44,293 nucleotides of DNA, from positions 1-44,293 of the IMG/VR virus record IMGVR_UViG_3300050821_009382; one strand, given 5' to 3'. The DNA is from a virus. Within the stretch, counting starts at the first letter, position 1; each line of letters starts with the position of its first letter. Of the stretch, positions 3,102 to 32,057 are shown in pieces. Under the pieces are notes generated by a model. That model worked only from the letters and a program-made list of their open reading frames with translations. It ran no database searches and was not told where the DNA came from. A program made the translations under genes and the position numbers.

Positions 3102-5692
3102 CAAAGGTCACCATAGGTGATTTTGGCGTCTTTTTCAACCTTGGCAATTTCAATGACGTAATCGGCAATGTCTTTGACGCCCTCGACGTGAGTGATGACA
3201 ATGATTGTTCTAAAGTAACGCTTCAGTGAAGTCAACAGGCGATTGCACGCCTCTACGTTTGCAGGGTCGAGCGCGCCGAAACTTTCATCAATGATGAGCA
3301 TGTCCGTCTTGGGCAACGACGACACGTTGATGAGCGCGACCCGGATTGCCATCGAGGCAATCATCTTCTCCATGCCAGAACCCAATTCAATGATGCGTTT
3401 GCTGTCACCGTAATCGATGTAAACCTCCATCGAGTCGCTGTCATCATCTTGTTCAAGCTCAACAGTGAAATTGACGATACCATTCAAGATGGCAGCAATC
3501 TCAGCGTTAATGAGAGGAAGCTGTGAAGCGACAATCATGCTCGGGATGCCGTAGCGAGAAAATGCAGTCGAAATCAGTTCATGAACTTTCATCTGTTGTA
3601 ACAGGTCGCTGCGGCGCTTGCGGTCAGATTCAGTCTTGTTGTGGTCAGATTGCACGTGTCCCATTTGAGACGCCAGTACTAACCGCTCACTGTCGAGTTT
3701 CTTAATGATTCTTTGCAAATCATCAAGCGAATTCCTCAATGCCACAACTTCAACATTTTCTTCATTTTTCAGAGCTTCTTTGAGCTCGTCGAGGCGCTGG
3801 CGAGCTGGTGTCAATTCAGTTTCAACGTCCTTCATAGCAGCCTGCAACCTGACAACTTCCACTTCCCGCGTTGAAATGTTAACTTTTAACTTAGACAACA
3901 TGTCAGTGAGCTGTTCGACCTTGGTAACCTTTGCAGCGAGGTCCTCTTTTTCAAGTTCAGCTAGCGCCTGTTCAGCCTTCTGCAATTTTTCTTGTGCACG
4001 AGCCACTTTTTCACGCTGAGGTTCAACTTTATCCTTCACTTTGAAAGCATCTTTGATGAATTTGCACCCGGGAAAAGTGTCACCGCAAGGTACTTCATCC
4101 AAAATCTTCAATGACCGTTCTTGTGACTTTAAGCGCAGTGCATCAGCTTCATGGACTAATTGCAGACTTTCAAATGATGACTTCAAAATCCGATATGAAT
4201 CTAACCGTCGCTTAAGCTCTTGCAAGTCGTGTTCAGATTGAATTGCTTCGATGGAGGCAATTTTTGCAGACAATTTGTCAATATCGTCTTCAGCAAGCAC
4301 CAGCTTGCCTCGAGCAGTCACTAACTTGTCTAACAGTGACGTCACTCGAGCTTGTTGCGCTTCAACTTGCGATTGCGTCACCGCCGTAAAATCTTTGAAA
4401 TCGACCAGAGCACGCATTTTGTCGTGCAACAACTGCTGCACGTCATTCAACAGGTGTTCTTTTTCTTTAATGTCTTCAGCGAGAGTCTTCAACTGCTCGG
4501 TGCACGACTTTTCAAGAGCCTTCCAGTCACGTTCAGGAAATGCCTTAAGGGTGCTCCTATTGACCTTGACGTCTTCGTTAGCAAGTAGGTGCATTTTGTC
4601 AAAGACGTCAAGGTCAAGAAATCGTGACAAATCCTTGCGGCGCTTCGTCGTTCCCTGACTAATGAACAACTTGACATCGTCCTGGGCCGCGACGGACGTC
4701 AACAGACAATCGTCAGAATTGCCAATCAATTTTCTCAACATCTTTTCAGTATCGTTGCGTTGTTCACCAGCTAAATCAATAGCCTCGCCCTCTTCATCAA
4801 TTCGAAATACATTGAGTGCAGTGTTAGCATGAACTTGCCCGCGCTTCGATTCATGCTTTACTGTCTGACGTTCAACAACGTAATTAATTCCATTGACGTT
4901 GACGATGGCTTTGGCATAACAATACGGGTGCCGAACGTTGACCACGTGAAGATTTTTAACGCTGCCGCGGTCCGTCGTATTGAACAAGCTATACATGATG
5001 GTGCCAACGACCGATGACTTGCCAGACGTATTTGCTCCAAAGACACCGATGATTCCGTTCAATTGGTCAAAATTGATGTGATTGCCTTCGCCGTAACTGA
5101 AGGTATTGTCAAATTTCAAGTGGCGAAGCGACCATTTGGTGTGCCTCACGGTATCGTCAACGTCCAACGCCTGTTGCAGGTACGACCCGACCTGTTCACG
5201 GATAGATTCCCACTCCATTTCTGTAACATTAGTGCTATTGTGATAGCTTTTCAACAGTCGCAATAGCACTTCAGGATTGCGTAAATCCTCTCTCATCAGT
5301 GTCGCGCCGCCAGTGTTGATGACGTCACGGTTGACTTGGCGGTCGCTCTTGTAGGTGACCTCGACCGCTTTCAGTTCTTGCCGAAGTGCACCCGTGAGTT
5401 GTTGAACTTCCTTTTGCGTCAACACTTCTTTGTTACGAACGCGGAACCTGGCCGAGCGAGGATGTTGACGAGCGACTGCAAGCGTAGCTTCGACTGACCC
5501 AGCCCATTCAATAGTGATGAATGGTTTAGGGTTGGGCAATGCACAAAACTCCACGTCAAAGTGGTCACGATTGTCAATGTCCCACAACAAAAACCCGTGG
5601 TCACGGCCCTCGGCATAATTTTGTTGCACTGGCGGGCCTGGATATGCCATCCAAGGCTTGTCAACCTTGATGCGCAATCTATCGGAACTCAC
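3101..5692 (-). CDS. Rad50/SbcC-like recombination ATPase (T4 gp46-like) with an N-terminal Mre11 C-domain
   Basis: ATPase partner of the Mre11/gp47 nuclease in end resection and recombination-dependent replication. Of the 863 residues, about 190-863 are an SMC/Rad50 protein: Walker A GANTSGKSS (about 219-227), long coiled coils around a CGDTFPGC hook-like element (C536, C543), signature LGSGMEK (about 770), Walker B LIIDESFGALDP (about 799-810) and the H-loop His at about 835. The first roughly 185 residues are not Rad50. MAYPGPPVQQNYAEGRDHGF and the segment after it look like the second half of an Mre11 protein, which is missing from the adjacent Mre11 gene. Translation starts at GTG 5692, overlapping the Mre11 stop as GTGA. 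The hook has CxxxxxxC rather than the usual CxxC. Confidence 0.92.
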   Translation of the reverse strand: MSSDRLRIKVDKPWMAYPGPPVQQNYAEGRDHGFLLWDIDNRDHFDVEFCALPNPKPFITIEWAGSVEATLAVARQHPRSARFRVRNKEVLTQKEVQQLTGALRQELKAVEVTYKSDRQVNRDVINTGGATLMREDLRNPEVLLRLLKSYHNSTNVTEMEWESIREQVGSYLQQALDVDDTVRHTKWSLRHLKFDNTFSYGEGNHINFDQLNGIIGVFGANTSGKSSVVGTIMYSLFNTTDRGSVKNLHVVNVRHPYCYAKAIVNVNGINYVVERQTVKHESKRGQVHANTALNVFRIDEEGEAIDLAGEQRNDTEKMLRKLIGNSDDCLLTSVAAQDDVKLFISQGTTKRRKDLSRFLDLDVFDKMHLLANEDVKVNRSTLKAFPERDWKALEKSCTEQLKTLAEDIKEKEHLLNDVQQLLHDKMRALVDFKDFTAVTQSQVEAQQARVTSLLDKLVTARGKLVLAEDDIDKLSAKIASIEAIQSEHDLQELKRRLDSYRILKSSFESLQLVHEADALRLKSQERSLKILDEVPCGDTFPGCKFIKDAFKVKDKVEPQREKVARAQEKLQKAEQALAELEKEDLAAKVTKVEQLTDMLSKLKVNISTREVEVVRLQAAMKDVETELTPARQRLDELKEALKNEENVEVVALRNSLDDLQRIIKKLDSERLVLASQMGHVQSDHNKTESDRKRRSDLLQQMKVHELISTAFSRYGIPSMIVASQLPLINAEIAAILNGIVNFTVELEQDDDSDSMEVYIDYGDSKRIIELGSGMEKMIASMAIRVALINVSSLPKTDMLIIDESFGALDPANVEACNRLLTSLKRYFRTIIVITHVEGVKDIADYVIEIAKVEKDAKITYGDL

Positions 5693-13135: not shown

Positions 13136-14425
13136 TTAAAAATCTAGTCGGACCCTTAACGTGAGGTCCCTCTCGCTCGACTTCTGCACGGGCCTCGAAA
13201 GCTTGGCCACGAAGAGAAGATTGTCATTGGCGTCATAGCCACCAACTGAGGTGATGTAGGTGAACGACTGCTGCGTATCTTCCTGACCTACGTCAATGAC
13301 CACGATGCGATTGGTGCTGTCAGTGTAGGTCGGATTGCTGGAGTAGTTGAATTCGTCAGCCGCGGCCCGACAGAAAATCAACGTGCTGTTGATGTTGGTG
13401 ATGTTCTGGAACGTCATCGCCGTCTGGCTGCCTGAACCCAGGCGCGCTGATGCAATGTGGTCGACGATGTTGTCGATTGAAGCGCTGACGACAAAGTCAG
13501 GGATAAACGCCGAGACAAACTGCGTCTGGGTTCCAGGTCCGCCCAACGTTTGTGCGCCCACCGACGCCATGGCATCGATAGTTCCAGAGACGTACTGGCT
13601 GCCGCTGGTCACCTTAGCCAGGTCGAGCACCAGGATGCCGCGGTCGTAGAACAGCAGGCCGACATTGCGATTGGTGTTAGCGCTGTCGACAACATTGCCG
13701 ACCTGACCGCCGAACGTTGTCAACTTGTTAGTCGCCGCACCGACGTCAGTATAGATAGCGCTGCCTGAAATTGAGGTCGAATTGAGGTTGGACACCCAGT
13801 TAGAACCGCCGCCGACACCGGGCGATTGAAACGGGTCAGTCTGTCCGTTGGGACCGACGGCGGACGCAGTCTGAAAGAACTGCATCGCAAACGTCTCTCG
13901 CTTGATGCTGTCACGAGAAAAGAGGCGCTTGAAAGCGATGAAACACGCAACGTCGATTTGGTCAGAAGGATTGCTGCTGTCAAGGGGCGACGTGAAGACT
14001 TGAGTGCTGTCTCCCAATAGACCTTGAGCGAACTGACGGTAGACGTCCATCTTTTCCCGCATCATCAATGATGAACTGGGAAACAATTCCTTGCCCGCGC
14101 TGTCAATTCCTGTCTGCGACGTGAGTTCAGTGGCGCCGCCAGGTTGCAGTCCCACCGTCATGTCGAAGATGGCGTTGGCTGTCTGCAGAGTAAAATCCTG
14201 GTCGTACACCGTTTGAAACAGCGAACTGGTGATTCCCGGACCGACTCCACCCGTGACGAAGACCTGATACTTGCGTCGCGAGACTGAACCGCTGATGTCC
14301 TCTTGGAGAACATCTATGAGCTGATTCAGGAACGAGCGCGCCGTCTTGATGTCTGACGGTAAAATTTCTTTGAAAGTCGCCGTGATTTCACCCTCCGAGC
14401 CTTGAAACGATGCCTGACCAATCAT
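13136..14425 (-). CDS. Virion structural protein
   Basis: A 429-residue soluble protein, Ser/Thr/Gly/Asp-rich in the middle. I recognise it only as a type of structural protein in the tail block of large T4-like phages. The N-terminal part contains SVSRRKYQVFVTGG and SLFQTVYDQDFTLQTAN, which look well conserved. The C-terminus (FTYITSVGGYDANDNLLFVAK to the terminal RLDF) resembles that of the 919-residue protein at 9328-12087. ATG 14425 lies inside the last 38 bases of the preceding endonuclease gene in another frame, with no clear ribosome site of its own. Confidence 0.8.
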   Translation of the reverse strand: MIGQASFQGSEGEITATFKEILPSDIKTARSFLNQLIDVLQEDISGSVSRRKYQVFVTGGVGPGITSSLFQTVYDQDFTLQTANAIFDMTVGLQPGGATELTSQTGIDSAGKELFPSSSLMMREKMDVYRQFAQGLLGDSTQVFTSPLDSSNPSDQIDVACFIAFKRLFSRDSIKRETFAMQFFQTASAVGPNGQTDPFQSPGVGGGSNWVSNLNSTSISGSAIYTDVGAATNKLTTFGGQVGNVVDSANTNRNVGLLFYDRGILVLDLAKVTSGSQYVSGTIDAMASVGAQTLGGPGTQTQFVSAFIPDFVVSASIDNIVDHIASARLGSGSQTAMTFQNITNINSTLIFCRAAADEFNYSSNPTYTDSTNRIVVIDVGQEDTQQSFTYITSVGGYDANDNLLFVAKLSRPVQKSSERDLTLRVRLDF

Positions 14426-15293
14426 TGGTCTTATGACACGCCATCAGCTCTTCGTCAGTAATCCTAACTAGTCTGTGACCACATGTTCTGAACCATTCAT
14501 CTTGTATGCGGTCTCTATCGTACTGCGACCGTCTGCTTTCATGTAGCTCTTCATACGGCATGTTTAAACCGTGCCAAAAGACACCGTCAGCCTCAACGTA
14601 GGTATCAATAGGTAGAACGTAAAAATCGATGAGCCATGGTTTTCGTCCACCATGTTGGATTTCGACCTGTTGCTGCACGTTATCCACACCGTACCAATGG
14701 TGCAGCATCGTTGTAAGAAGAGCCTCAGGTTTTGAGAGCATTTTATCTCCGCGTTTCAAGATGAGCGCACGGTATCCAGCTTGTCCACCTTTGACTGCCG
14801 CGTCTAGGTCTCGAAATGGTGACCCGTCGCTAAACGGATTATCAACACCGTATCTATCGCGATACGTCCCACGTTTCTTCTCCTTGATTTTAGCTGACTT
14901 TGAAAGGTGTTCGACCCCATGTCTCTCAATCATCGTCGCTTTGAACTGTGCGTTCGATGTGGACTTCGGGTCAGACGGAGCTCGAGCGCCCGTTCTAATT
15001 TCACGCGTCGTAATCATCTTCTCAGCTGCACCAGATACCTGCGATGAATATTCAACGCCATGGCGAGCAAGTTTAGTCTGTTTCCACTTCTGCGCTAATT
15101 GACCCGACGAACGACTCTTTTTATTGCACTTATTCCCACAGAACGTCAAAGCACCGTTCATCTTGTGCGCTGACTTGTGGCCTAAGGCGAATTCAATGTC
15201 GCACTCATCACACTTGAATACGTCTTTATGACGAATGTGCTGCGTATTCCAACGTCGATTGACGTAAAATTCCTCAACAGTACGAAGATACAT
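14388..15293 (-). CDS. VSR-like (PD-(D/E)XK) free-standing homing endonuclease
   Basis: 301 residues in three parts. An N-terminal zinc finger has CDEC at 28-31 and CGNKC at 52-56. Then come repeats of the form T-x-x-x-RHGVE-x-x-S and RDRYGVDNPFSD (about 70-160), which are DNA-binding modules seen in phage homing nucleases. The C-terminal nuclease has Glu190 (SKPEALL), Asp223 (WLIDFYV), E234/D236 (YVEADGVFWHG) and a basic CGHRLVRITDEEL end, as in VSR-like enzymes. It separates two virion genes, and its final 38 bases overlap the start of the next one. Confidence 0.82.
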   Translation of the reverse strand: MYLRTVEEFYVNRRWNTQHIRHKDVFKCDECDIEFALGHKSAHKMNGALTFCGNKCNKKSRSSGQLAQKWKQTKLARHGVEYSSQVSGAAEKMITTREIRTGARAPSDPKSTSNAQFKATMIERHGVEHLSKSAKIKEKKRGTYRDRYGVDNPFSDGSPFRDLDAAVKGGQAGYRALILKRGDKMLSKPEALLTTMLHHWYGVDNVQQQVEIQHGGRKPWLIDFYVLPIDTYVEADGVFWHGLNMPYEELHESRRSQYDRDRIQDEWFRTCGHRLVRITDEELMACHKTNDWSGIVSRLGG

Positions 15294-28300: not shown

Positions 28301-28525
28301 TCAGACCGTTTCAGTCTTGACGGGCTTTTCTGCGCGCTTGGCCTTGTCAAGTTCAACAGTAAGCTTGACGAGCTCAGCAGTCTTGCTCTTCAGGTCACGC
28401 ATGCTCTTGCGAGCTCGGACGCCTGCCGCAGCATTTCCCTTTGCGTTCTTGACGATGTCAAGTTCAAGGACGTCCACGAGAGCCTTCAATTCAGTCCACT
28501 TTGCAATCACTTGGTTGTCATTCAT
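28301..28525 (-). CDS. Histone H1-like (Hc1-type) small DNA-binding protein
   Basis: 74 residues, mostly helical and Lys/Ala-rich. The segment NAKGNAAAGVRARKSMRDLK followed by a second helix (SKTAELVKLTVELDKAKR) matches the Hc1 pattern of chlamydial and phage histone-H1-like proteins. A perfect AGGAGG lies ten bases before ATG 28525, suggesting high expression, as expected for an abundant nucleoid protein. It may bind phage or host DNA; that is inference from the family. Confidence 0.65.
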   Translation of the reverse strand: MNDNQVIAKWTELKALVDVLELDIVKNAKGNAAAGVRARKSMRDLKSKTAELVKLTVELDKAKRAEKPVKTETV

Positions 28526-28605
28526 GTTAGGTAATCCTCCTGCAAGTAAGTATACCGCTCGCAGTCACTCGTAAAACTAAAGGGGTCGCAGCGCGCGACG
28601 GTGAA

Positions 28606-29130
28606 CTAACTCAAAGCGTCTGAAAATTCACTCGGAAACATGTTTCGATTCGACCGATAAAAGCGCTGCCAGTCACTGTCGAGAATGTATGAAACAGCAT
28701 GGTCTGTGTCATTACGAACAGAACGTCCTAAGGCTTGAATCACGGCCCTTGCAGTTTGACACGAGTACCAATTTGAATTTTTAGCGGCGCGCAACTGAAT
28801 GACCCGGTCGCCCAAGTATGGAAAAGGGACCTTGCACAAAATTTGAAACCGACTCGCGTCGTCCTTGAGGTCAACGCCCTCTGTCATCGACGGGCTGATG
28901 AGGACGGTCGGGTCCTTGCTTTGCATGTGAAATTCAATCATGTCTTCACGATTTTGTGCATCATGCATCAGCAACCGCGGTGACTTAATCGTGTCCACGA
29001 GGTACTTGGCAACTCGATAATTTACGCAATTGTGCACGACGACACCTGATGCCACAAAATTATGCGTTCGTTCTACTGTGATGTCAAAGACATGACGTTT
29101 ACCCACACTCTTTTTCCCTAGTAACTTCAT
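28606..29130 (-). CDS. Fractured XPD/DinG-type helicase, C-terminal part with C-intein
   Basis: 174 residues from ATG 29130, which overlaps the endonuclease stop as TGATG. Residues 1-34 are a C-intein (VFDITVERTHNFVASG, ending VVVHN). Residue 35 is the Cys that begins the C-extein (CVNYRVAKYL). The remaining 140 residues are the second RecA lobe of a superfamily 2 helicase, with SPSMTEGVDLKDDASRF (motif V) and QALGRSVRNDTDHA (motif VI). After trans-splicing to the product of 29866-31413 the helicase would be about 557 residues. Neither part could act alone, since the Walker motifs and the arginine finger are on different polypeptides. Confidence 0.9.
   Translation of the reverse strand: MKLLGKKSVGKRHVFDITVERTHNFVASGVVVHNCVNYRVAKYLVDTIKSPRLLMHDAQNREDMIEFHMQSKDPTVLISPSMTEGVDLKDDASRFQILCKVPFPYLGDRVIQLRAAKNSNWYSCQTARAVIQALGRSVRNDTDHAVSYILDSDWQRFYRSNRNMFPSEFSDALS
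29029..29130 (-). other. C-terminal half of split intein (34 residues)
   Basis: Encodes intein block F (HVFDITVERTHNF) and block G (VVVHN), with the penultimate His and terminal Asn needed for Asn cyclisation, followed by the +1 Cys. Size and motifs match C-inteins of natural phage split inteins such as the gp41 group. Confidence 0.92.
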
Positions 29131-29864
29131 CACTTTACGCTGATGCCTTTCTGATTGAGCACGTCATTAGTCCAAAGCTGTGAATCGTTTGGATGTTCTG
29201 CATGAAACCATTCCCACTTTTCTTTACCAATACCGAATAATCGACCCTTGATTTCTACCCACGTGTTCGCAAACTCACCAGTTTTGACGAAAGCATCAAT
29301 GATATATTGCCGTTCATCAGGCATCCGATGTGAAATTTGCCAATCAAAATCAATGTGATTAGCGTTACACCAATTGACAAAGGCAAATTCATAGCTACCA
29401 ACACAAATCAATTCTTCACCCGTCAACCAATGAGCGATTTTTTGACTTCGACGTATCACACTTCGAGCCTTTGAATACACCGACGCTGGTCTACGTCGTA
29501 ACTTCAGACAAAGATTCGCACGTTTCGTTGGGTCGGCCCACATCTTCTTCGCAAGAACTGACCTTTGCAATCGACGGAACTGTCGTGTTTCATCAGTTAT
29601 GCCGTTCATGATTGCTTTTCTATATGATTCAACTTGCCACAATTTCTTCGACCGACAACTTCTACACAACCATGGATAATCTTTCATCACCTCATCACGT
29701 AGCATTGTGACATACACGTCTGTACACTCATCACATGCATACTCAATGCGGCGCTTACGCCCTGAACTATCTTTGCGCTGATATGCATGTGTTAATGTGA
29801 ATTCGTCCTTGTTCAGCACGAATTCACCAATCTGTAACAACCGTGGTAAGGCATGGGCCGACAT
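29130..29864 (-). CDS. VSR-like homing endonuclease between the split-intein halves
   Basis: 244 residues. An N-terminal zinc-finger-like region has CDEC at 44-47 and CRSC at 67-70. A basic helical linker follows, then a nuclease domain with GSYEFAFVNWC (about 157-166), YIIDAF (Asp190) and TWVEIKGRLFG (E204, K206), the arrangement of VSR-like (EDxHD-type) homing nucleases. It starts one base after the stop of the N-terminal helicase gene and overlaps the C-terminal gene, so it fills the fracture exactly. Its likely target is the uninterrupted helicase gene. I know the same combination only from fractured split-intein genes in environmental phage DNA. Confidence 0.85.
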   Translation of the reverse strand: MSAHALPRLLQIGEFVLNKDEFTLTHAYQRKDSSGRKRRIEYACDECTDVYVTMLRDEVMKDYPWLCRSCRSKKLWQVESYRKAIMNGITDETRQFRRLQRSVLAKKMWADPTKRANLCLKLRRRPASVYSKARSVIRRSQKIAHWLTGEELICVGSYEFAFVNWCNANHIDFDWQISHRMPDERQYIIDAFVKTGEFANTWVEIKGRLFGIGKEKWEWFHAEHPNDSQLWTNDVLNQKGISVK

Positions 29865-29865
29865 G

Positions 29866-31413
29866 CTAATAGGTACGGTGCACTATGTCAAGGATATCAT
29901 CTTCTTCAGTTAGTTCATCTGCGCATACCCACCCTCGATTTTGAGTGAAAATGAGGTGCTCGGGCGTACACACTAATCGCTCATTCTCGAACTGTAACTC
30001 GATACAATCACGTTCACCATTGTCATAAACCGCTGTAACGGGTTGACCAATAAACTCTTGAACAGCTTCATCCCATGAAACAACGCAATCACCAACTTCA
30101 ATCTCAGAAAGTGGTTTCTGTGAATTGTCAAACATGTGTACCTTCTGTGAACCTTCAACACAATGAATTATGCCCTTTTCAGTTTTGTGTCCTTCGAGAA
30201 GCTGTTGAACGACTTGAGCCATTTTGGGCAAAGTATTGTCAATGTTCGCTCGATTCATGCTTCCTACGTCCAAAAAGTGAACGGGGCGATTTGCCACTGG
30301 AAAGGGCGATGGAATGCGCAAAAACGCAACGTCGTTTGAATTTAACCCTATCGATTTACAGAACGTGTCCTTATCGACGACCGTCGCAGACATCATCACT
30401 ACTCGAGAACCAAATCGGTACAAGTGTTCATTTCCATATGATGATACGTCAACAGGTTTGAATTCGAATTTGCGGCCGCCGCGAGCTTCGCCCGGAGGCG
30501 CCTTCACCGGGTTCATCACCCAATTTGTCGGGTCGTACGCCTCAATGAATCGATTGACCTTGCAGATGTGCTTGTCGAGCATTTCGTATCGCTTGCTGGT
30601 CTCACTCATTCCAGAGGCTTCATGACCTCCGTCAACAAAGCCCTGAGACAACTTTTTCTCCATTTCACGAAGGGCCTTACTGACAGCTTTCTTGTAAGAG
30701 CCTTTTATCCATTCAAAGACTGCTGCGTCGGTGTCCAATTTTGGAATTTTGCAACCGAGCGACCGAGCGAATCGTTCGGAAAATGACACTTCAATGAACT
30801 TTCCTAATTCATTCTCGATATTATGACATTCATCAATGACTAATAACGACCGCGGCGTCAGTTGCTTAGCATACATCGTTTCGGCGAGAAAATACGAAAA
30901 GTTAGTGATGCCGATCGGAAATTCCAAGAACTCTTCCTTGTCGAGTGTGTACGGACATGCTTGGGTGCAACACTTGTGAAATTCTGAACCCTTCAATTGC
31001 TTACCGAGTTGTTTAAGCAATCGACGTGAATCTGAACATCTCATGTCCTCATAGAACCTACAACCATAGTTGTTAGCCGACTTGAGCGACCTCATCAAGT
31101 TTTTCCCAGACGATGGACCAAAGTCATCCATGTACTGTGACTGCAGAATTTTCTGTGTGGTCAGGACGTAGGCACCCGACGTTTCTTGCTTGACGCCATC
31201 AATTTCATCACCGTACGTGGTCCCACCGTGTTCAGCAAGAAACCGCGCTACGGTGATGCCAATCGCTGACTTACCACCGCCAGTGCCAATTTCAAGAATG
31301 ACAAACTTTTTCCCTTGTGCCAAGAACGCATCAAGTGCAAATTCAATCGCCTTACGTTGTTCAGGACGTACAGCATCAAAAGGAAAGTACGCCTTAACGT
31401 CATAGTGAGTCAT
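29866..31413 (-). CDS. Fractured XPD/DinG-type helicase, N-terminal part with N-intein
   Basis: 515 residues. Residues 1-417 are the N-extein: Walker A EIGTGGGKSA (43-49), DEAH-type box VIDECHN (194-197) and motif III VMMSATV (about 340-345). Cysteines at 118, 126, 148/149 and 153 are placed like the iron-sulphur cluster ligands of XPD/DinG 5'-3' helicases. Residues 418-515 are an N-intein beginning CVEGSQKVHM. The break falls in GIIH-C-VNYR, a conserved helicase segment of the second lobe, so splicing restores GIIHCVNYRVA. Function needs the partner encoded at 28606-29130. Start: ATG 31413. Confidence 0.92.
   Translation of the reverse strand: MTHYDVKAYFPFDAVRPEQRKAIEFALDAFLAQGKKFVILEIGTGGGKSAIGITVARFLAEHGGTTYGDEIDGVKQETSGAYVLTTQKILQSQYMDDFGPSSGKNLMRSLKSANNYGCRFYEDMRCSDSRRLLKQLGKQLKGSEFHKCCTQACPYTLDKEEFLEFPIGITNFSYFLAETMYAKQLTPRSLLVIDECHNIENELGKFIEVSFSERFARSLGCKIPKLDTDAAVFEWIKGSYKKAVSKALREMEKKLSQGFVDGGHEASGMSETSKRYEMLDKHICKVNRFIEAYDPTNWVMNPVKAPPGEARGGRKFEFKPVDVSSYGNEHLYRFGSRVVMMSATVVDKDTFCKSIGLNSNDVAFLRIPSPFPVANRPVHFLDVGSMNRANIDNTLPKMAQVVQQLLEGHKTEKGIIHCVEGSQKVHMFDNSQKPLSEIEVGDCVVSWDEAVQEFIGQPVTAVYDNGERDCIELQFENERLVCTPEHLIFTQNRGWVCADELTEEDDILDIVHRTY
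29869..30162 (-). other. N-terminal half of split intein (98 residues)
   Basis: Starts with the nucleophile Cys. Block A is PLSEIEVGDCVVSWD, and block B is LVCTPEHLIFT with the TxxH triad (T66, H69 of the intein). It ends after EEDDILDIVHRTY at a TAG stop. No endonuclease domain is inside; the endonuclease is a separate gene. Confidence 0.92.
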
Positions 31414-31463
31414 TTGTGACTCATCGTACTACGACAATTGACGTTCTACACGGTGATTGTTTG

Positions 31464-32057
31464 TCAAGAACCGATGATTTTGTCAGCGATGCCGAATTCG
31501 AGGGCTTGTTTAGCATCAATGTAGAAATCGAGCATTGGATTCATCACCTTGCCAATCGTTTCCGCGGTCATTTTCGTTTCAGCAATGAGTGCATTGACCA
31601 TTTGATTTTGAAGTCGAGTCAATTCTTGAGATTGATTGGCGACTTCAAATACGTTGCCCACGACTCCTCCCGACGCAGGATGCATCATGATACGTGCAGA
31701 CGCACCAATGAGACGTTTCCCTTTTACACCAGACGCAAGCAATAGCACCCCTGCAGACATCACTTTTCCTAATGCGACAGTGTGAACTGGGCACGGGAGA
31801 AATTTGATGCAATCGTATAAACTGAACATTTCATCAATTGAACCGCCATACGTTGACACAATGAGATGAATAGGCATTTTGCTGACATGTGCTAAGTGCA
31901 ATAATTGCGCAATGACTTGAGCAATGACGTGTTCTGTCACTTCGCCGTGAAGAAATACCATGCGTGAACTGTCTGTCTGAGAAACCGCTGCGGAAATTTG
32001 CTCGACGCCCTGCGATTCATCACCAACGTTTTTAGCTTCAAATGTTTGACGTCCCAT
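31464..32057 (-). CDS. ClpP-type serine protease
   Basis: 197 residues from ATG 32057, with AAGGGAG six bases upstream; a TTG at 32099 is less likely. The catalytic triad is visible: Ser101 in GKVMSAGVLLLASG, His126 in IMMHPASGG, Asp177 in MLDFYIDAKQALEFG. The oxyanion GGSI is at 71-74. ClpP forms barrel proteases that need a Clp ATPase; none is in this window, so the enzyme may use the host's, act alone on unfolded substrates, or serve as a head-maturation protease, as some phage ClpP-fold enzymes do. It overlaps the preceding gene by 20 bases. Confidence 0.9.
   Translation of the reverse strand: MGRQTFEAKNVGDESQGVEQISAAVSQTDSSRMVFLHGEVTEHVIAQVIAQLLHLAHVSKMPIHLIVSTYGGSIDEMFSLYDCIKFLPCPVHTVALGKVMSAGVLLLASGVKGKRLIGASARIMMHPASGGVVGNVFEVANQSQELTRLQNQMVNALIAETKMTAETIGKVMNPMLDFYIDAKQALEFGIADKIIGS

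What the first reader, a model, noticed from the sequence alone, without database searches (positions are those of the whole stretch)
28606..31413. Helicase gene fractured by a split intein with an endonuclease gene in the gap
The sequence shows an XPD/DinG-type helicase in two genes. The first ends in a 98-residue N-intein (Cys1, blocks A and B), and the second starts with a 34-residue C-intein (HN then +1 Cys). The break lies in GIIH-CVNYR, a conserved second-lobe segment, so protein trans-splicing would rebuild a helicase of about 557 residues. This fractured organisation is known for phage-type genes such as gp41, NrdJ and IMPDH in environmental DNA. I do not know it for an XPD/DinG helicase with iron-sulphur ligands, so it may be a new host gene and a new intein family member.
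Basis: partly seen in the sequence, partly recalled or inferred. Interest (0 to 1): 0.92.

Follow-up and report, generated by a model that had tools for sequence, protein, structure and literature searches.

The report
Phage helicase gene split by intein
A bacterial virus carries its helicase gene in two pieces, separated by the gene of a DNA-cutting enzyme, and each piece ends or begins with half of a self-splicing protein element (an intein) that should join the two protein halves; this kind of arrangement is known, but I found no report of it in this helicase.

Summary
On the minus strand, a 515-aa ORF (417-aa N-extein plus 98-aa N-intein), a 244-aa ORF and a C-half ORF (34-aa C-intein from its ATG plus 140-aa C-extein) lie head to tail. 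The joined exteins (557 aa) match a phage XPD/DinG-like helicase family end to end (phrog_2488, E 9.5e-112). Sixteen relatives at 58-77% identity encode it in one uninterrupted frame, reading GIIH|CVNYR (or T/S at +1) exactly where the window has its 1134-bp insert. Gene order around it is conserved. All splicing residues are present. The middle ORF ends in a PD-(D/E)xK nuclease domain (TnsA / I-Bth0305I-like) shared with free-standing phage nuclease genes. Best explanation: a mobile split intein with its endonuclease gene in the gap, spliced in trans: the 'fractured gene' arrangement of Dassa et al. 2009 in a host gene I could not find reported. The intein is not a new family: its closest relative found (46-48% identity; C-intein 62%) is a split intein in the DNA polymerase III alpha gene of a related 309-kb phage, where that gene is broken several times. 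No splicing or cleavage was tested.

The parts
30163..31413 (-). N-extein: helicase residues 1-417 (Walker A GTGGGKS, four Fe-S type cysteines, DECH box, MSAT motif), ends GIIH
   Evidence: phrog_2488, Pfam DEAD_2 and ResIII
29866..30162 (-). N-intein, 98 aa, Cys1, block B CTPEH, plus stop codon TAG
   Evidence: Pfam Hint 5.2e-07; 46% identical over residues 1-91 to a pol III alpha split intein
29130..29864 (-). Endonuclease gene, 244 aa; residues ~130-244 a predicted PD-(D/E)xK domain with conserved E159, D190, E204-x-K206
   Evidence: starts 1 bp after the N-half stop, stop overlaps the C-half ATG
29029..29130 (-). C-intein, 34 aa from ATG (35 from GTG 29133): block F VFDITVERTHNFVASG, block G VVVHN
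   Evidence: NCBIfam intein_Cterm 1.6e-09; 62% identical to G005 pol III alpha C-intein
28606..29028 (-). C-extein: helicase residues 418-557, +1 Cys (CVNYR...), motif QALGRSVRN, plus stop codon
   Evidence: Pfam Helicase_C_2 2.2e-19; phrog_2488 positions 421-576

Best explanation
A mobile split intein has entered the conserved GIIH|CVNYR segment of the second lobe (about motif IV) of a phage XPD/DinG-type helicase gene. Three tightly linked ORFs are made: N-extein/N-intein, a PD-(D/E)xK homing-type endonuclease, and C-intein/C-extein. The intein halves associate, excise themselves (Cys1 acyl shift, transfer to Cys+1, Asn cyclisation) and join the exteins into a 557-aa helicase. The endonuclease would cut intein-free alleles at or near the site and so copy the cassette by double-strand-break repair. 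Shown: gene structure, intein and nuclease homology, uninterrupted relatives, the site. Inferred: splicing, cleavage, homing, Fe-S cluster, helicase activity.
For: Intein signatures in both halves. Joined exteins match one family continuously. 16 close relatives and a wider set of 80 loci are uninterrupted; in 65 aligned sequences the four residues before the site are almost invariant and +1 is C, T or S in 62. The neighbours (GroEL-like, ClpP-like, helicase, small ORF, PhoH) keep the same order in relatives, so this is an insertion and not a misassembly of unrelated genes. The C-extein is as conserved as the N-extein (77.9% vs 77.3% to L002), which argues against decay. The endonuclease C-terminal domain is predicted with high confidence (pLDDT about 88-97 over 141-240) and resembles TnsA (Z 9.3, 2.2 A over 99 residues) and, more weakly, I-Bth0305I (Z 6.2). 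Its relatives are free-standing phage genes; one pair of contigs (L028/L036) shows the same neighbours with the gene complete and with only a stub. Intein and endonuclease have lower GC3 (0.35-0.43) than the exteins (0.50-0.55).
Against: No experiment. The endonuclease N-terminal 130 residues are unmodelled and match no family. No second intein-bearing allele at this site was found, so homing is not shown.
Confidence: 0.88

Rival explanations
1. The gene is broken and dying: the intein halves no longer splice and the helicase is lost, the cassette persisting only because the endonuclease spreads.
For: Only one carrier was found among about 90 loci; metagenomic contig, no expression data.
Against: All splicing residues intact; both exteins keep open frames, catalytic motifs and similar identity to relatives; three ORFs tightly spaced.
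Confidence: 0.06
2. A group I or II intron, or programmed frameshift/readthrough, joins the halves instead of protein splicing.
For: Endonuclease genes often sit in phage introns.
Against: No Rfam match up to E=1 in 28500-31500; the helicase frame holds 29 stops between the halves; intein blocks A, B, F, G are all present.
Confidence: 0.02
3. The two halves work as an unspliced two-subunit helicase, or the endonuclease is a separate free-standing gene that arrived on its own between the intein halves and does not serve this intein.
For: The endonuclease domain is mostly found in free-standing genes; no other pairing of this endonuclease with this intein was seen; the most similar intein (G005) has no relative of this endonuclease and only a 443-bp gap.
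Against: Joined exteins rebuild an intact conserved protein and the intein is complete; nuclease-like ORFs in split-intein gaps are seen again in pol III alpha of G002 and G005. The second half of this rival (endonuclease a separate arrival) is not excluded.
Confidence: 0.1

Closest known systems
Fractured genes with split inteins and a Vsr-type endonuclease (Dassa et al. 2009; gp41, NrdA, NrdJ, IMPDH)
   Same: Two ORFs carrying half extein plus half intein, similar split (98+34 here; 88+37 gp41-1, 110+46 NrdJ-1 in the table of PMC11766414), endonuclease gene in the gap
   Different: Different host gene; +1 Cys instead of Ser; endonuclease belongs to a divergent group. The 2009 paper could not be read here; cited through others and from memory
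MIJ3 jumbo phage PolB split intein with HNH endonuclease ORF (PMC6892783)
   Same: Same layout in a cultured jumbo phage
   Different: Host gene is DNA polymerase B; endonuclease is HNH
Split intein 5 of pol III alpha in 309-kb phage IMGVR_UViG_3300037010_002844 (G005)
   Same: Closest intein found: 46-48% identity over the whole, 62% in the C-intein; that phage has an intact helicase of this family (L049)
   Different: Host gene is DNA polymerase III alpha; 443-bp gap without a relative of this endonuclease
Free-standing phage endonucleases L021, L027-L035, L132, and the group II intron HEGs with EDxHD/Vsr-like domain (PMC12350094)
   Same: Shared C-terminal nuclease domain with the loci (39-59% identity); several of those have repeated N-terminal modules as that paper describes
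   Different: Not in an intein gap; kinship with the paper's HEGs was not tested by alignment

Membership tests
Fractured-gene split intein | Two separate ORFs, N-extein/N-intein and C-intein/C-extein | tested here: met
Fractured-gene split intein | Complete set of splicing residues (Cys1, TxxH block B, Asp block F, His-Asn block G, nucleophile +1) | tested here: met
   C1, TPEH, FDITV, HN, C+1
Fractured-gene split intein | Intact intein-free homologues at the exact junction | tested here: met
Fractured-gene split intein | Endonuclease gene lying in the gap | tested here: met
   (nuclease by predicted fold and conserved residues; activity untested)
Fractured-gene split intein | Splicing in trans | not testable with these tools
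   needs co-expression
EDxHD/Vsr-type homing endonuclease | Catalytic domain related to I-Bth0305I / Vsr | tested here: inconclusive
   PD-(D/E)xK-like fold; I-Bth0305I Z 6.2, TnsA Z 9.3; no sequence match
EDxHD/Vsr-type homing endonuclease | Site-specific cutting of the intein-free allele | not testable with these tools
   needs a cleavage assay
phrog_2488 phage DNA helicase (XPD/DinG-like) | End-to-end profile match and SF2 motifs | tested here: met
XPD/DinG Fe-S helicase | Four conserved cysteines between motifs I and II | tested here: met
   Cys118, 126, 149, 153 invariant in 65 sequences
XPD/DinG Fe-S helicase | Bound iron-sulphur cluster and helicase activity | not testable with these tools
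   needs purified spliced protein

The most novel reading that the evidence does not exclude
In this group of large phages one family of split inteins hops between non-homologous replication genes (pol III alpha, helicase), into sites with similar flanks (GIFQ|C in the polymerase, GIIH|C in the helicase), pairing with whichever PD-(D/E)xK endonuclease gene is at hand, so that several replication proteins must be assembled by trans-splicing from many genes.
Probability: 0.35. Interest if true: 0.68.

Novelty: new member of a known kind. Interest (0 to 1): 0.47.

Why it matters
It adds an XPD/DinG-type helicase to the host genes of naturally split inteins, gives a Cys1/Cys+1 split intein pair worth testing as a protein-joining tool, and links a split intein in one replication gene to its nearest found relative in another gene of related phages, a case where movement of split inteins between non-homologous genes can be tested directly.

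Tried and rejected
Intron: no Rfam match. Readthrough: 29 in-frame stops. Sequence search of the endonuclease domain in the PDB gave nothing significant; Pfam gave no significant match for P0002 itself. dN/dS could not be estimated because synonymous sites are saturated. CB7_80 helicase intein (PMC7344957) was considered as a precedent: it is a PIF1-like helicase with a LAGLIDADG intein in one reading frame. Vibrio phage helicase inteins (L023, L037) lie in single ORFs of Helicase_C/ResIII proteins. Literature searches for intein with XPD or DinG gave no precedent.

Full report
What is there. On the minus strand three ORFs run head to tail: 31413-29866 (515 aa), 29864-29130 (244 aa) and 29130/29133-28606 (174/175 aa). 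One base separates the first stop from the second start (TAGCATG); the second stop overlaps the third ATG (TGATG). The window is a whole virus record of 44,293 bases, with terminase, SbcC/D, primase, PhoH and ClpP-like genes.

The exteins. Removing 98 residues from the end of the first ORF and 34 (35 from GTG) from the start of the third gives a 557-aa protein. It matches phrog_2488 (DNA helicase) in a single stretch, residues 4-556 against profile 8-576 of 579, E 9.5e-112, more than either half alone (376 bits against 215 and 145). Pfam gives DEAD_2 and Helicase_C_2, and the nearest solved proteins are FANCJ and XPD. Cysteines 118, 126, 149 and 153 are invariant in 65 aligned sequences, which fits an Fe-S cluster domain; binding is inferred.

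Empty sites. A scan of IMG/VR gave 17 relatives, 16 over the whole length at 58-77% identity, each uninterrupted. A scan with their alignment returned the best 80 of 226; those covering the whole protein span about 1570-1680 bp, and none of the 64 that I aligned had a gap or insertion at the junction. At +1 the 65 sequences have C (48), T (10), S (4) or A (3). The DNA flanks align codon for codon once the 1134-bp insert is left out. The gene order GroEL-like, small ORFs, ClpP-like, helicase, small ORF, PhoH is kept in relatives. In 50,697 phage records the helicase family appears in 490, with at least 80% of the query in one place in 434, all below 60% identity.

The intein. Joined, the halves match Intein_splicing above its cut-off and solved inteins. 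The splicing residues are C1, TPEH, FDITV, VVVHN and C+1. The split lies at the usual endonuclease position. The nearest inteins found by direct scan of viral contigs are ribonucleotide reductase inteins, one split (L019/L020) and one contiguous (L117). A closer relative turned up in a related 309-kb phage (G005): 46% over N-intein residues 1-91 and 62% over the C-intein; 64 of 138 alignment positions identical overall, E 3e-40 for that single comparison. That intein sits in DNA polymerase III alpha at GIFQ|CTGQG. Among 24 related records searched, 6 held a recognisable relative of the intein and 18 did not; many are fragments.

The endonuclease. Residues 130-244 are predicted with high confidence as a PD-(D/E)xK-like domain. 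The best solved matches are TnsA (Z 9.3 and 9.1) and, lower, the homing endonuclease I-Bth0305I (Z 6.2, a range where a common arrangement alone can score). E159, D190 and E204-x-K206 are conserved in the eight aligned members. Relatives are free-standing phage genes. L028 and L036 share neighbours but L036 keeps only a stub of the gene, as expected of a mobile gene. Two relatives of the window phage (G007, G008) carry the same domain elsewhere. A 2025 study describes group II intron endonucleases with repeated N-terminal modules and a C-terminal domain distantly related to EDxHD/Vsr (PMC12350094); ours may belong there, but was not aligned to them.

How it works. Most likely the three proteins are made from one message, the intein halves meet and splice the helicase, and the nuclease spreads the cassette by cutting empty alleles. 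Splicing, cutting and homing are inferred. GC3 is lower in intein and nuclease (0.35-0.43) than in exteins (0.50-0.55), which fits later arrival. It is not excluded that the nuclease gene arrived separately from the intein.

Known or new. The arrangement is known (Dassa et al. 2009, not held; MIJ3 PolB). I found no report of it in an XPD/DinG-type helicase in an open-access library; absence there is weak evidence. So: a new member of a known kind, in a host gene that appears unreported.

A by-product that may matter more. In G005 the polymerase III alpha gene, intact at 1263 aa in the relative G003, is spread over at least seven ORFs in about 13 kb, with intein halves at most of the breaks and nuclease-like ORFs in several gaps. 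In G002 the same gene is broken once, at the site of G005's intein 6, with a nuclease-like ORF in the gap. No intron matched Rfam in either. I did not resolve every break: the one near reference residue 746 lacks a clear N-intein start and the next piece lacks a C-intein.

Noticed in passing
L130 (G005:C1:74500-88500, reverse strand): DNA polymerase III alpha gene of a related 309-kb phage is broken into at least seven ORFs, with split-intein halves at most breaks and nuclease-like ORFs in several gaps; one extein piece (SGAPDID) would be only 7 residues. The gene is intact (1263 aa) in G003.
   Followed up: partly
L161/L131 (G002, 340-kb phage): Pol III alpha broken once at the site of G005 intein 6 (71% identical intein), with a nuclease-like ORF (LIVEFDGDYWHG) and other ORFs in the gap.
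   Followed up: partly
window 14388-15293 (-): Second endonuclease-like gene (phrog_3339 homing endonuclease, Pfam DUF7487, weak MTES_1575), free-standing between two probable structural genes; L027 has a different endonuclease next to similar-looking genes.
   Followed up: partly
L028 2089-2880 and L036 near 4001-4111: Same gene neighbourhood with a full-length and a stub copy of the endonuclease, suggesting gain or loss of a mobile gene.
   Followed up: no
L030 1754-3211 and 4339-8333: Endonuclease of the same domain family followed by a 1331-aa ORF with four intein-like stretches, an HNH domain and a T4-type portal domain; the ORF before it starts with a Hint-like stretch, perhaps another split intein.
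   Followed up: no
L020 5143-7279: Ribonucleotide reductase large-subunit gene split by an intein into two ORFs with about 65 bp between them and no endonuclease.
   Followed up: partly
L120 2675-4864: 729-aa phage protein with three Hint/intein-like modules ending in HN, the last at its C-terminus.
   Followed up: no
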